From Astropecten irregularis (lineage: Eukaryota; Echinodermata; Asteroidea; Paxillosida; Astropectinidae): a DNA stretch of 64,000 nt. The translations under genes were made by a program, and so were the position numbers. The notes under the pieces are model-generated. The model worked only from the letters and a program-made list of their open reading frames with translations. It had not been told where the DNA came from and ran no database searches. The DNA is taken from NCBI GenBank assembly GCA_963971285.1, contig OZ020263.1, positions 4,712,001-4,776,000 of the forward strand, given 5' to 3'. Each line of letters opens with the position of its first letter. Position 1 is the stretch's first letter. Shown piece after piece: positions 1 through 27,649 of the stretch.

Positions 1-1
1 C

Positions 2-3000
2 GTTCAATCTGTGATGACATTAGCTGTCCCTTCAACTTCCTGACCTCGCTGCGCAGCTGATCGACATAAATTGTCAGGTTGTCCGTGGTGTTCCCGTTCT
101 TGATCTCCCTGGGCGAGGCTGGGGCAGAAACTGGCTCATCTAACTTCTCCTGTAGCATTCTTAAAGAAGAACAAGAAAAGAAAAATGGTTTGACCTTTCA
201 CAGATTCCATTTGTACCTGGATGATGAGGATGTAGTTGCTGTATAATGCGCATCCTACACAAGGCTATTGGAAGCCACTTCTGGGAAGCTGAGACACTGC
301 TTCACTTGTCACCACCATGACCACAGGACAAGCAGAAAGACCAAAGCTGTGCCATTCTACTCTGTCAGGCACAGCTAATAATATACTCTACTCCTCACAA
401 GGCTAGTGACTGAGAACCTTTTGCCTAAGCTCACCTCTTCTCTGCCTCTAGTCTGTCCATTCTCTTCCAGAGTCTGTTGACGAGGGCCTCTTGCTCCTGT
501 TCCAGGCAATTCTCAAGATCCACTTTCTCCCGTCTCAACTGGGGTTAACAAATTACAGAGTTACAAAGGGTTAAGGTTAATTTGTGTGAATAAATGAAAA
601 GCTAGTACATTATTTCCTTCTGACTCAGATGGCCAAGTGTGTTTCATTTGCAACAGACAGTGAGTTCTGTTCTATGACCTCAACCAATCGAACAAGCATG
701 TCATTCCTTTAGCAGGGAGTGAACAGATCCTGAGTGAATACCCTGCCTCGATCTGGGGACTTATTTCTCCACCAAGCGGCCGGATCAAGCACGTACCTCC
801 TCCAGCTTCTTCTGCTTAGAGACGGTGTCATTCTCCAGTCTCTCTATCTTCCTCATCAGCTTGTTGACCTGGTATTCCTGCTCTTGTTCTAGCGTTCTCT
901 CCAGCTGGTGCTTCTCTTGCCGAAGCTGGATAGGAAAATCAACCAGTAAAAATACGAAGATCAACCAGTGCTCTGTTAGCATTTAACTATTTTTGTGACT
1001 ATACACGCGACTGTACCTTTCAAAGTGCAAACTCGTCAAATTGTTCAACTAGCAAAGCTGATTTGAGAAAGATCCTGCTAAGATCAAAACGTCAGGTCCT
1101 ATAGCCTTTGAGAAAGATCCTGTTAGGATCGAAACATCAGGCCCTCTAGCCTTTGAGAAAGATCCTGCTAGGATCAAAACATCAGGCCCTCTAGCCTTTG
1201 AGAAAGATCCTGTTAGGATCGAAACGTCAGTGCCTCTAGCCTTTGAGAAAGATCCTGTTAGGATCGAAACATCAGGCCCTCCTAACCAGCCTAACTCTCA
1301 GCATTTTGTATAAATACATGTATATTTCAGGTCATTATTTTGGTTGATGATCAGTATGCAGCAGTTTACCACTTGTATTGAAAAAAAATTAAATAATAAA
1401 ATGTCCACTAGAACATCTGAAAGGGTGTTGAAATAATGAATGACCCCAGGTGTGGATTAAACCAATCAACACATGTTTCATATGGACAGCTGTACTGAGC
1501 ATACATGTACCTCCAACATTCAAATGGTTTGAATAGCCTAATTTTGCAATCTGCAAAAGTAATCTTGGAGGTGTGCAATGGTGGAAAACAATTAAGACTG
1601 TTTTGTTTGCGGTCGACATCCATCTGTGACTTTTTGGGGAGTGGTGAACCAAACAGCCCTTCTCAGAGCCGCAATTATTCACGAAGGTATTACATACAGA
1701 GTATACAGCAAACTAAATAGCCTGAAGCCCTGTCTGCACTGGAATTTTTTTTCCTGGGGGTTTCACCAAGCCGATGGGTAAATGAAAAATTGGCAAATAT
1801 TACCAGTGTCCACACTTGGACTTTTGACTCGGGTAACTTAACCGTATACGTGCACGGAAGAATTACCGAGCTGTCAATACTTGGCTCGTGAGGGAACCCT
1901 ACTCGCACTCTCCGCACTGGACTTTTTGTCTCAGGTTAAGTGTCTGGGGAATTCTTCCTGGGCAGAAGTTGGCCGGTAGAATTGCCCGCATGGGTCGGGA
2001 AAAGTAACGGAAAAGAGGAAGACTTCCCGAGACGTTCACACTGGACTTAAAACGGGTTAAGTACCCAGCCTCTCGGTAACTTTGCCCCAACAAAATCCTG
2101 GGCAGACAGGGCTTTAGTCAACGAAAGAGTTGTAACTTTACAGGGGTCAGGCTAAGAATCCTCTGACATAGGGACCCCACTGACTGGGACCAGCTAGACA
2201 CTGATCAACGGTTACATACCTGGACAAGTTTGCGGGACAGGTCGTTGGTTAGAAATTCTTCCTCCTGCTCATAGTTGACAGCTAGCTTCTCCTTCTCTTT
2301 CTTGAGAGCTTGGATCTTCTTCAGGAGAGTGTTGCTAATGAATTCCTCCTCTTGTTCGGCTTGTGCTTGCTGATAATAGGAGCAAAATCACCAAAAAAGG
2401 AGAACAATTTAATCAAAACTTGTGCAGGTTTTTACAATTAAAAATAGCGTGCAATTCAAACTACTGGCTATCATTATCTTCCAATTGTTAAGAGGGCATC
2501 AATGCGTTTCTATCCTAGCAGGATCTTTCTCAAAGCCTTTGAGAAAGATCCAGCTAGGATCAAAACACATCAGGCCCTCTTACATGTAACTCCAAGCATT
2601 TTATAAATTTCAGGTCATTATTTTGGTTGATGAGCATTTTGCAGCAATTTATTTCTTGTACTTCTTCGTTTTTAAATGTCACATAACCACAAAGGATTTG
2701 TTTTTAATTTACAATGTAGTTTGATAAGATATATATATATAATACTGTACGTAATTTATTACATCTGAAATAAACTTTTTTGAACCTGAGCCAGACTGCT
2801 ATAAATGGACCCTTTAAATGGACAGGGCACTGGCTGTCTAAAAGCTTAGAGTTCATACATATGATACACACTTGTCCTAATTACATGTACGCTGTATATT
2901 TACATAGAGGCCACTATCTGGCCACTGATGGCCATGGCCCAGGAAATTCCAGGCCGGTCGAGTCCAAATCTCACTGCAAGCCATGTCCATGTCAGACAAT

Positions 3001-25500: not shown

Positions 25501-26402
25501 GAGTTCATCGCCCCATTTACTGGGTCTAGACAAGCCCCACTAGTGTGGCACGAATTTTCGCTCAAGCCGCTCCATCCTTAGCCACACGTCCAACCGCCTG
25601 ATATACGGGAGATATGTTCTGCTCTTGTGCGCGACCGGCGCAATAAATGGCGCCGGTGTAGCACCAGTGAATGACCGAAAAATAGATGAATACAAGATTG
25701 AAATCATTCGAATTATATATCATTGGGAAGATGAGACACTAAGGAACATTTGTGTATGTAGAAATTGTGTGAAATGTGATGACAAGAGGGTGCGCACCAG
25801 AGCCGAACATATCCCTCATAAATCAGGCGGTTGGACGTGTGGCTAAGGATGAAGCGGCTTGAGCGAAAATTAGTGACACAAGGTGGGGCTAGGTCTAGAC
25901 TTGCCCTAGGCCAGGCGGCCCTAGCCTACCCGGTACTTCAATTAACGTTAATCAGCATGATCAATGACGACTGAACATGCTGAATTATGAAGAGAACACC
26001 ACGAACCGTTCTTACAAAAAGATGTTTCCCATTCCTTTATAGTTTTGGGCCCATCATCCCAATCAAGTAACGGTTACCAATTTTTCTTTGTTCACTTTTC
26101 AATGACTCAAAGTTCAGTCAGCTTCACTTGTGTGAAAACTAAGTTATTTGTAAACTTACGATAGGCCTATTCACACATGCTCCTTTCATCAACTTCAACT
26201 CTCTGTTTTCTCCTTGAACTTGAAGTAACTTGCACTTGCAGCACATCTTGTAGGTTTCCAACTCAATCTTCAGGACCTTATTTTCTTGCTCCAAAGAGGC
26301 GTTTCTGTTCAGCAGCTCTTCTTCCTTCGTAGGAACTGACATCTTGATGCTGTCCGTATCGCTTTCAATCTCAACTGCGCTCTCGATCGCCATGTCCGCC
26401 AT
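21429..26402 (-). CDS. CCDC6: CCDC6 copy B (tandem paralogue), 3' end not found
   Basis: Exons in transcript order: 26160-26402, 24773-24922, 24127-24255, 23443-23546, 22769-22926, 22292-22546, then a second version of the last exon at 21429-21650. Splice sites and phases match copy A exactly (150, 129, 104 and 158 bp for exons 2-5). Exon 6 carries [20 protein letters not shown], then [16 protein letters not shown] and [17 protein letters not shown], the conserved CCDC6 C-terminal segment. Exon 1 (81 codons) is 8 codons longer than in copy A and diverges at its end ([24 protein letters not shown]), disturbing a well-conserved coiled-coil start. No final exon (the region following the SPG motif in vertebrates) was seen between 21428 and exon 1 of copy A. 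Copy B is therefore either 3'-truncated or spliced to exons beyond the window. All seen exons are open, so it is not an obvious pseudogene. Confidence 0.88.
24020..24105 (-). repeat. tRNA-like fragments on the minus strand (also 44940-45035)
   Basis: GGGTCGAACCCGGGCC and, at about 44960, GGACTCGAACCCGGGC are inverted B-box sequences. The rest of a tRNA fold is too diverged for a tRNA gene; they are read as SINE or pseudo-tRNA remnants. Confidence 0.5.
24605..24745. mobile_element. GGCTGATTTCAC MITE with CCAGG target duplication
   Basis: A 141-bp hairpin-like element, ends GGCTGATTTCACTAACGCTT and AAGCGTTAGTGAAATCAGCC, with CCAGG on both sides (24600-24604, 24746-24750). The matching site in copy A (about 2190) is uninterrupted. 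Confidence 0.85.
25055..25528. mobile_element. Second copy of the CGTAGACCC foldback family, interrupted
   Basis: The interior GAAAATGTCCCCAAATGACA and the right arm GGGGGAGTTCATCGCCCCAT match the 12.7 kb copy. The 130-bp Mutator-like element at 25303-25432 is inserted in it. The left arm is missing. Confidence 0.7.
25303..25432. mobile_element. 130-bp Mutator-like miniature element in CCDC6-B intron 1
   Basis: It starts TAGTTGCGATGA and ends TCATCGTAACTA, the same terminal sequence as the 3.2 kb element at 13716. It is flanked by the perfect 9-bp duplication TTCTCTGGG (25294-25302 and 25433-25441). The AGGGTTACGATCATCG unit of the terminal repeat is present three times near the right end. 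Confidence 0.85.
25529..25910. mobile_element. Foldback MITE with about 110-bp arms
   Basis: The left arm GGTCTAGACAAGCCCCAC, then GCTCAAGCCGCTCCATCCTT is inverted at the right (AAGGATGAAGCGGCTTGAGC, then GTGGGGCTAGGTCTAGAC). It abuts the previous element. Both are in CCDC6-B intron 1. Confidence 0.78.
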
Positions 26403-27649
26403 GTCTGCCTGATTTTGATTTTCTCGTCTGCAAAATATTTTCGCTGGTTTCCAAAAACCACAGGCTTCGTTTGTACGTAACCACCGAATGCAAAGTACCA
26501 GTACTCTGCAATGACAGGTGTATTGTGCAGTGCATTGATCAGTAGCGCTCTTTTACAAAAACAGGAAAAGTTTTCATCCTGACCCCTTACCACAAAGAAA
26601 TGTGGTTAGTTGACCCCGTACCATGCATACCACAATGTGATTACTCATGATTGTTCCCCTTGTGTAGCAAGAGGGCGCTATTACCAATTACCATAGTTAT
26701 GCCAATTTCTGATGGTCTTGCCAGTTACATGTGCATGGCCATTTTATACTGCCCCATCACTATTTTGCATTTTTGTATGAAAAATAAAGCATGGAGGTAG
26801 AAATAAATAAGTAGGCAAACACCACCACCCACACCCCAAAACAGGTCACTGGCTAGGTCTGCCGGTTCATTTTTAATATTTTCAATGGCATCACCTTGTT
26901 TGCAACTTTTGAGACCACCAAATTAATTCTTTCTCTTCTTTCCTTGCTGACAAAACCATGCAGACTTTTTAAACAATGGAAATGGATCTGGTACGTATTT
27001 AACCTAAAAAAACCCAAAGCATCTATTGCCTCCATGCTCAAATATAGTAATTTTCATCAACTACATTGTAATCAATTTTCTTCTGCAGTACAATAACACA
27101 TATGAAGCCAAATCAGAACAATTTGAACTGTTGAATGTCTTTAACTGTACAACCTGATTACACAATTCAATAAAAAGCCCACTAAATGATGACAAGCAAT
27201 TAACAAGCGTCAGCATATACTGTAAAATTTGTTCATTTTATTACAACCTTTAACAATTTATACAAAGCTGATAAAGAAAATTAAGGTAGCACTTTATCAC
27301 TTCAGCACTTTTTCTTTATCATTTCGATAGACTGACACCGCTACCCACAATTTTGTTCAATACAAAGCTGATTAAATTGTTTTACGCACACAGTAAACTT
27401 TCCTGGTGTTTCAGAAAGTTAAATATTGCACTTTTTCTTGAAATCAATTAAAACAGATTGCTGCATAATCGGACAATTACATGTGACACCCCTTGATCAG
27501 TTGACAAAAACAAAAACAAAGAAAACATCATAACAAAAAATGAAAAAAAAAATTGAGTGCATACACATTGGTTTGGGTGTCAAAAAAACAAATTCAAATA
27601 ACATTTCTAATTAAAAAATATATATATTTGGACGCTAACATATAAAGAT

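What the first reader, a model, noticed from the sequence alone, without database searches (positions are those of the whole stretch)
1..27630. Tandem segmental duplication of CCDC6, 3' next to SLC25A16
Two CCDC6 copies in the same orientation share exon sizes, phases and intron sequence (for example GCGACTGTACCTTTC near 1005 and 24345, and AGGCTAAGAATSCTCTGACA near 2150 and 24560). They also share upstream DNA: 17.8-19.74 kb matches 26.4-27.63 kb. The homology stops just before the SLC25A16 3' end, so the duplicated unit appears to have included the CCDC6-SLC25A16 spacer. Intron 1 is 15.2 kb in A but 1.2 kb in B, mainly from transposons. Vertebrates generally have a single CCDC6, so this looks lineage-specific.
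Basis: partly seen in the sequence, partly recalled or inferred. Interest (0 to 1): 0.7.

Follow-up and report, generated by a model that had tools for sequence, protein, structure and literature searches.

The report
Duplicated CCDC6 with transposase zinc-finger tail
In what looks like a sea star genome the gene CCDC6 was duplicated in tandem, and the copy that lost its own end appears to have gained a new one from a piggyBac jumping gene, which would be a newly built fusion gene if it is expressed.

Summary
The tandem duplication is real and is not two alleles. The two CCDC6 genes (PF09755), the only ones found in this 476 Mb genome, lie head to tail in one 14.3 Mb contig. Six exons share phases and splice sites; dS is 0.29, dN/dS 0.21, and noncoding homology is about 80-88%. 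The host is probably a sea star, not a vertebrate.

There B continues into about 450 bp of a piggyBac transposase gene: its cysteine-rich zinc finger, one intron and the last exon. The first exon of this piece has a good acceptor and is in frame with B exon 6 and with a duplicated exon 6'. B is therefore predicted to encode a CCDC6 coiled coil fused to a piggyBac zinc finger, a host-transposase fusion like primate CSB-PGBD3. Copy A is conserved; B evolves faster but is still constrained. Splicing is predicted only: there is no expression evidence, and selection on the piggyBac part is not proven.

The parts
17554..17772 (-). Copy A exon 1 (coding part)
2220..2369 (-). Copy A exon 2
797..925 (-). 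Copy A exon 3
435..538 (-). Copy A exon 4
2..159 (-). Copy A exon 5. Exon 6 and candidate exons 7-8 lie left of the window at C28:4711471-4711725, 4708912-4709012 and 4702175-4702261
   Evidence: exons 7-8 are candidates only
26160..26402 (-). Copy B exon 1 (coding part), with four in-frame indels relative to A
24773..24922 (-). Copy B exon 2
24127..24255 (-). Copy B exon 3
23443..23546 (-). Copy B exon 4
22769..22926 (-). Copy B exon 5
22292..22546 (-). Copy B exon 6, ends in phase 1
21429..21650 (-). Copy B exon 6', a duplicated exon 6 with a 33-nt in-frame deletion, both splice sites kept
20452..21104 (-). Intron-6 minisatellite shared with copy A; its pyrimidine-rich strand precedes the piggyBac exon
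19999..20449 (-). Fragment of the 3' end of a piggyBac transposase gene (homologous to C15, L048)
20176..20443 (-). Predicted copy B exon 7: piggyBac cysteine-rich domain, in frame with exons 6 and 6'
20047..20080 (-). Predicted copy B last exon, ends in TAG; ATTAAA at 19866
17538..19733 (-). Exon 1 region and upstream spacer of copy A, patchily homologous to 26144-27608 upstream of copy B
26144..27608 (-). Exon 1 region and upstream spacer of copy B, up to the SLC25A16 side

Best explanation
A tandem duplication copied the segment from the SLC25A16-CCDC6 spacer to intron 6 of CCDC6. Copy A (downstream) kept the whole gene. Copy B (next to SLC25A16) lost the last exons. At the breakpoint, in an intron-6 minisatellite, B is joined to the 3' end of a piggyBac transposase gene. 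The minisatellite's pyrimidine-rich strand and a CAG also present in the transposase coding sequence form a splice acceptor in frame with B exon 6 and 6'. B is predicted to be read as exons 1-6 (with or without 6') spliced to the piggyBac cysteine-rich domain and its last exon, ending at a TAG with a poly(A) signal 181 nt further on. The product (446 aa, or 520 with 6') would be a CCDC6 coiled coil with a C-terminal zinc finger of a kind that contacts DNA or histones; the coiled coil would oligomerise it into a multivalent chromatin binder, while A keeps the original role. Shown from sequence: the duplication, homology of B's 3' exons to piggyBac, the open phase-matched frame, constraint on B's CCDC6 part. 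Inferred: loss of a native 3' end, splicing, expression, zinc binding, function.
For: Only two CCDC6 loci found. Six exons with identical phases and intact splice sites; no stop or frameshift in 1,039 nt of B. dN/dS 0.21 (bootstrap 0.14-0.32); the four A-B indels in exon 1 are multiples of three. The minisatellite shared with A reaches B 20452 (the best single alignment ends at 20542), and homology to the C15 piggyBac gene begins at 20449. B 20443-20176 plus 20080-20047 reads in frame from exon 6 and from 6' to a TAG. Acceptors 20080 and 20443 rank 1st and 4th of 179 AGs scored downstream of exon 6', and the 2nd (20533) enters the same frame. The C15 relative is a piggyBac-type transposase (PF13843, E 3.6e-66; PDB 6x67 and piggyBat 9c0f) and its last intron is homologous to B's. 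A profile of five such domains finds the piggyBat C-terminus (E 3.5e-7). B keeps 16 of 17 columns invariant in the four others, including the 4 Cys and 1 His among them. B evolves faster than A: 22 B-only against 2 A-only changes versus human CCDC6, a recalled sequence; PF09755 gives 455 bits for A and 389 for B. Precedent: CSB-PGBD3 (PMC2268245, passages).
Against: No RNA evidence. Constraint on the piggyBac piece is not established: dN/dS against C15 is 0.35 with bootstrap range 0.17-0.74, and its retention of invariant columns is not significant (p 0.11). Frame agreement alone has a 1 in 3 chance. Pfam and a single-sequence PDB search do not recognise B's 100-aa domain on its own. What B lost rests on candidate exons of A: exon 8 similarity is reached by 6 of 200 shuffles in 10 kb and 3 of 60 in 119 kb; exon 7 similarity is reached by 568 of 2000 shuffles; and the splice-score threshold that gave exon 7 would have missed 8 of the 11 known internal exons (scores), so it is not a unique choice. 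With most change on B's side, B's own dN/dS is nearer 0.4 than 0.2 (inference).
Confidence: 0.6

Rival explanations
1. Copy B is a truncated CCDC6 whose transcript ends in intron 6 (the frame closes two codons past exon 6: Gly-Glu-stop), and the piggyBac piece beside it is an inert relic.
For: The read-through of exon 6 stops at once. Selection on the piggyBac piece is not significant. In-frame junctions arise by chance one time in three.
Against: Exon 6 and 6' keep donor sites. Both downstream piggyBac exons have high-ranking acceptors and an intact frame with conserved Cys/His. The two coding indels against C15 are 24 and 6 nt while the three intron indels are 1, 7 and 16 nt.
Confidence: 0.2
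2. Copy B shares copy A's 3' exons: B transcripts run through A and splice from exon 6 to A's exon 6 or 7, a nested arrangement with a shared 3' end.
For: B lies upstream of A on the same strand; exon 5 and 6 donors of B are in the phase of A's exon 6 and candidate exon 7 acceptors.
Against: It needs transcripts across more than 20 kb past a poly(A) signal at 19866 and past A's own promoter, and it ignores nearer acceptors.
Confidence: 0.1
3. Copy B is a decaying pseudogene with no product.
For: Faster protein change, altered exon 1, extra exon 6', no native 3' end found.
Against: No stop or frameshift in six exons, in-frame indels only, dN/dS 0.21 with an upper bound of 0.32, below the 0.5 or more expected if one copy drifted.
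Confidence: 0.07
4. Assembly artefact: two alleles side by side, or a false join at 20450.
For: A minisatellite lies at the junction; no reads were available to check.
Against: dS 0.29 and 12-20% noncoding difference are too large for alleles by general knowledge; different insertions in each copy; no other CCDC6 locus in the genome.
Confidence: 0.03

Closest known systems
CSB-PGBD3 (primate CSB-piggyBac fusion)
   Same: Upstream host exons joined in frame to piggyBac sequence that serves as 3' terminal exon, with a poly(A) site shortly after the stop (PMC2268245, passages).
   Different: There a whole transposase sits in an intron and is used by alternative splicing of a single gene, with the element's own splice site. 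Here only the C-terminal cysteine-rich domain is present, without the catalytic core, on a truncated tandem duplicate, using an AG that lies within transposase coding sequence; and no transcript is known.
Host-transposase fusion genes in general (SETMAR, KRABINER; named in PMC12062965, passages)
   Same: A host protein gains a transposase-derived, potentially DNA- or chromatin-binding domain.
   Different: A zinc finger would be gained at the C-terminus together with a genomic intron of the donor gene, at a tandem-duplication breakpoint.
piggyBac cysteine-rich domains, e.g. PiggyMac (PMC8086355, abstract and section 5)
   Same: By my reading B's order (upstream His, CxxC, CxxC, C, C-x4-H) resembles the variant arrangement described there (CxxC-CxxC-C-CxxxH with an upstream His).
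   Different: Spacing of the last pair differs by one; no catalytic core. The PiggyMac domain bound histone H3 weakly and not DNA, so B's target is open.
CCDC6 (PF09755, 'conserved protein H4')
   Same: Full-length domain match in both copies.
   Different: B has an altered exon 1, an extra exon 6', and no CCDC6-like C-terminus was found for it.

Membership tests
CCDC6 (PF09755, DUF2046) | Domain match above the Pfam cut-off of 24.7 bits over the profile length | tested here: met
   A 455.2 bits, B 388.8 bits
CCDC6 (PF09755, DUF2046) | Native C-terminus after the coiled coil | tested here: inconclusive
   Candidate exons 7-8 for A, weakly supported; none found for B
Tandem segmental duplication (paralogues, not alleles) | Two collinear copies in one contig with paralogue-level divergence | tested here: met
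Tandem segmental duplication (paralogues, not alleles) | Reads spanning both copies at normal depth | not testable with these tools
   no reads available
piggyBac transposase cysteine-rich domain | Homology to the C-terminus of a piggyBac transposase | tested here: met
   70% identity over 89 residues to a gene with PF13843; DNA homology including the intron; profile hit to piggyBat 9c0f. On its own the domain has no Pfam or PDB hit
piggyBac transposase cysteine-rich domain | Conserved Cys/His kept | tested here: met
   16 of 17 columns invariant in the four others kept, including the 4 Cys and 1 His among them; the change is Pro to Arg
piggyBac transposase cysteine-rich domain | Zinc binding | not testable with these tools
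   none
Host-transposase fusion gene | Host exons and transposase sequence in one open, phase-matched frame with splice sites | tested here: met
Host-transposase fusion gene | A fused transcript or protein | not testable with these tools
   no RNA data held
Host-transposase fusion gene | Purifying selection on the transposase part | tested here: inconclusive
   dN/dS 0.35, range 0.17-0.74; p 0.11
Complete piggyBac element (considered for the B fragment) | Catalytic domain and both ends present | tested here: not met
   homology to the C15 gene covers only about 450 bp of its 3' end

The most novel reading that the evidence does not exclude
A duplicated gene that lost its 3' end at the duplication breakpoint was rescued by a transposase zinc finger that supplied acceptor, last exons and stop, giving a lineage-specific, oligomeric CCDC6-piggyBac chromatin-binding protein under selection, beside an almost unchanged parental copy.
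Probability: 0.4. Interest if true: 0.72.

Novelty: new member of a known kind. Interest (0 to 1): 0.55.

Why it matters
Well-studied host-transposase fusions such as CSB-PGBD3 use a whole element inside an intron as an alternative last exon. Here the fusion would have been made at the breakpoint of a tandem duplication, so the parental gene is untouched and the new one is free to change. Both genes, a relative of the piggyBac donor and the junction are in one assembly, so the steps of origin can be read directly and checked in other sea stars. CCDC6 is also the N-terminal partner of RET in thyroid-cancer fusions, where its coiled coil drives oligomerisation (recalled); copy B would be a natural case of the same module with a new C-terminal partner.

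Tried and rejected
Allelic misassembly: rejected on divergence and structure, though without reads. Vertebrate or amphioxus host: a GFP-family search of the genome found nothing but is uninformative, since its controls did not ring either. The mitochondrial contig then pointed to a starfish. Naming the species from genome size gave one paper, on an aphid.

Native CCDC6 C-terminus: a whole-genome search with the human C-terminus (recalled) gave only weak hits, best E 3.8, and a motif scan printed nothing. Local alignment gave candidate exon 8 with weak significance. A splice-site enumeration over 9.4 kb gave one open, phase-fitting exon 7, but its threshold (score above 4) would have missed 8 of 11 known internal exons of A and B, and exon 7's similarity alone is not significant (568 of 2000 shuffles). 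Exons 7+8 joined score 64, reached by 1 of 2000 shuffles; exon 8 had been chosen by similarity, so this is optimistic.

Whole piggyBac element inserted here: not supported; about 450 bp of 3' sequence only, and of the three TTAA sites in 19733-20460 (19862, 19901, 20116) none abuts either end.

Literature, listings only unless said: CCDC6 with duplication and amphioxus (3 papers), ccdc6a/ccdc6b (2), CCDC6 with sea star (1) or starfish (1): none is about such a duplication by title and abstract start. Two of CCDC6, piggyBac, transposase (10 of 3,002 listed; the four that hold all three were not read) and three of transposase capture, echinoderm, fusion, piggyBac (10 of 29 listed): none is about this fusion by title and abstract start. 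Host-transposase fusion, piggyBac, PGBD3: 12 of 41 listed. No structure prediction was run.
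Full report
What was checked. The window is C28:4712001-4776000 of a 475.7 Mb genome in 168 contigs; C28 is 14.3 Mb long. Coordinates below 1 are bases left of the window start (x corresponds to C28 position 4712000+x). Self-comparison gives a collinear chain between the two copies. The whole genome was searched with the CCDC6 family model PF09755: 12 exon-level matches from 14 scored candidates, all between C28:4.711 and 4.739 Mb, so two CCDC6 genes were found and no third.

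Gene models. Copy A (minus strand): exons at 17772-17554, 2369-2220, 925-797, 538-435, 159-2 and -275..-529. Copy B: 26402-26160, 24922-24773, 24255-24127, 23546-23443, 22926-22769 and 22546-22292. Phases and splice dinucleotides agree, and both frames are open. PF09755 matches score 455 (A) and 389 bits (B).

Paralogues, not alleles. Over 337 aligned codons dS is 0.287 (bootstrap 0.20-0.38), dN 0.060 (0.044-0.080), dN/dS 0.21 (0.14-0.32). In the longer noncoding alignments about 12-20% of sites differ. Synonymous divergence is lower in exons 2-4 than in 1, 5 and 6 (10 of about 76 against 40 of about 132 sites, p 0.007), which may reflect gene conversion. If B had drifted neutrally, its branch alone should have added roughly 0.14 to dN (half of dS), more than the whole pairwise dN of 0.060; so B has been constrained. 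With human CCDC6 (recalled) as outgroup, B differs alone at 22 and A alone at 2 of 301 sites. B has thus evolved much faster; its own dN/dS is nearer 0.4 (inference). The four exon-1 indels are in frame (3, 12, 9 and 6 nt).

Extent of the unit. Upstream, homology runs patchily to 19733 (A) and 27608 (B), about 300 bp short of the ORF taken for SLC25A16's last exon. Downstream it runs through exon 6 and a CT-rich minisatellite in intron 6: the best single alignment ends at -2921 in A and 20542 in B, and shifted alignments of the repeat reach 20452 in B. B also has a second exon 6 (6', 21650-21429, 222 nt) with both splice sites kept; its ends match A's exon 6 and its centre matches B's exon 6, a mosaic that suggests gene conversion. 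Intron 1 of A contains a nested pair of transposons at 13.7-16.9 kb; of the 40 places scored elsewhere and here, 21 copies of the outer and 18 of the inner element are listed at 94-98% identity. A palindromic high-copy repeat of about 150 bp sits between B exons 2 and 3 and is absent from A.

The 3' ends differ. In A, an enumeration of splice-site pairs from -530 to -10000 (13 acceptors, 6 donors above threshold) gave one open exon that fits the phase, -2988..-3088. It leads in frame to a candidate last exon at -9739..-9825 that resembles the end of human CCDC6, with a poly(A) signal at -9926. These two exons are candidates only. Exon 8's similarity is reached by 6 of 200 shuffles in 10 kb and 3 of 60 in 119 kb. 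Exon 7 alone is not significant (568 of 2000), and the pair is matched by 1 of 2000 with the caveat that exon 8 was picked by similarity. The acceptor threshold used (above 4) would have missed 8 of the 11 known internal exons, so exon 7 is not a unique choice. Both lie beyond the duplicated unit, and nothing like them was found in B.

What B has instead. At 20449, three bases past the edge of the minisatellite, B becomes homologous to the 3' end of a piggyBac transposase gene on contig C15, to about 19999, including that gene's last intron and last exon (75% over the main 357-column block; intron 77 of 94 aligned bases). The C15 gene is a piggyBac-type transposase by Pfam (PF13843, E 3.6e-66) and by PDB relatives 6x67 (labelled Transposase) and 9c0f (piggyBat). 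The piece in B corresponds to the cysteine-rich domain: a profile of five such domains, B's included, finds the end of piggyBat (E 3.5e-7; the other ten hits have E 0.09 or more and are unrelated names). B's domain alone is not recognised by Pfam or by a single-sequence PDB search. B keeps 16 of 17 positions invariant in the four other domains. In the genome, B's domain has one close relative (C15, 70%) and four weak ones (28-39% identity, E 0.01-0.2; those on C12 and C20 are near-identical to each other).

Reading frame and splice sites. Exons 6 and 6' end in phase 1. The exon 20443-20176 starts in that phase and reads the zinc finger in its own frame; 20080-20047 completes it to TAG, and ATTAAA lies at 19866. 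Of 179 AG sites scored downstream of exon 6', the acceptors at 20080 and 20443 rank 1st and 4th; the 2nd, 20533, enters the same frame through the minisatellite, and the 3rd (19793) leads to a stop after three codons. The AG at 20443 is also present in the C15 coding sequence, which reads through it, and the minisatellite provides the pyrimidine tract, so the acceptor looks like a by-product of the junction. Coding indels against C15 are 24 and 6 nt, intron indels 1, 7 and 16 nt.

How it probably works. B would make a 446-aa protein (520 aa if exon 6' is also included) with the CCDC6 coiled coil and a C-terminal piggyBac zinc finger. Published work shows that these domains differ in partner: that of T. 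ni piggyBac binds DNA, that of PiggyMac does not and contacts histone H3 weakly (PMC8086355, abstract and section 5). A coiled-coil oligomer with such fingers would be a multivalent chromatin binder. Everything after the reading frame is inference.

What it is like. The closest case is CSB-PGBD3, in which CSB exons 1-5 join a piggyBac element as an alternative last exon (PMC2268245, passages). Here only the zinc finger is present, and it completes a truncated duplicate. A paper on PGBD5 reports only distant, intronless piggyBac ORFs in a sea urchin (PMC3902484, passages); the C15 gene here appears to have an intron.

Host. The 16,335-bp mitochondrial contig reads COX1 with the echinoderm code and has two long reversed frames, which I read as ND2 and ND1 (recognised from recall), between the tRNA-Phe/12S end and COX1. 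A 4.6-kb inversion of 16S, ND1, ND2 and part of the tRNA cluster distinguishes starfish from sea urchins (PMC3308324, passages; the same passage groups brittle stars with starfish by gene order). The host is therefore probably a sea star; a brittle star is not strictly excluded.

Limits. No RNA, reads or related genomes were available. Constraint on the piggyBac part is not established (dN/dS 0.35, range 0.17-0.74; p 0.11). The literature searches cover open-licence PMC papers only, and several were seen as capped listings.

Noticed in passing
L048 (C15, match at 19914825-19915100): A long piggyBac transposase frame with an apparent intron before its last exon; the only close relative of B's domain found in the genome, so it may itself be domesticated.
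   Followed up: partly
21429-21688: Duplicated exon 6' of copy B is a mosaic: A-like at both ends, B-like in the middle, suggesting gene conversion between exon 6 copies.
   Followed up: partly
13716-16890: Outer terminal-inverted-repeat element of about 2.1 kb interrupted by a 1.07 kb element; both have many 94-98% identical copies in the genome, so they were recently active.
   Followed up: partly
24604-24751: Palindromic high-copy repeat of about 150 bp in copy B between exons 2 and 3, absent from copy A.
   Followed up: partly
1062-1281; 2534-2580; 19746-19792; 28955-28996: A 45-bp repeat unit, tandem at the first place and single or partial elsewhere, in both orientations.
   Followed up: no
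59602-59787 and 60422-60591: Two 16-bp tandem arrays whose units look like reverse complements of each other, about 600 bp apart.
   Followed up: no
56832-57183: A 21-bp tandem array (16.5 copies) open as an ORF on both strands.
   Followed up: no
C131:32162-33484 (L039) and C25:9951047-9952018 (L041): C131 (102,890 bp) carries a COX1 without internal stops in a 552-aa frame, possibly bacterial; C25 carries a COX1 piece with 7 TGA, probably a nuclear copy of mitochondrial DNA.
   Followed up: no
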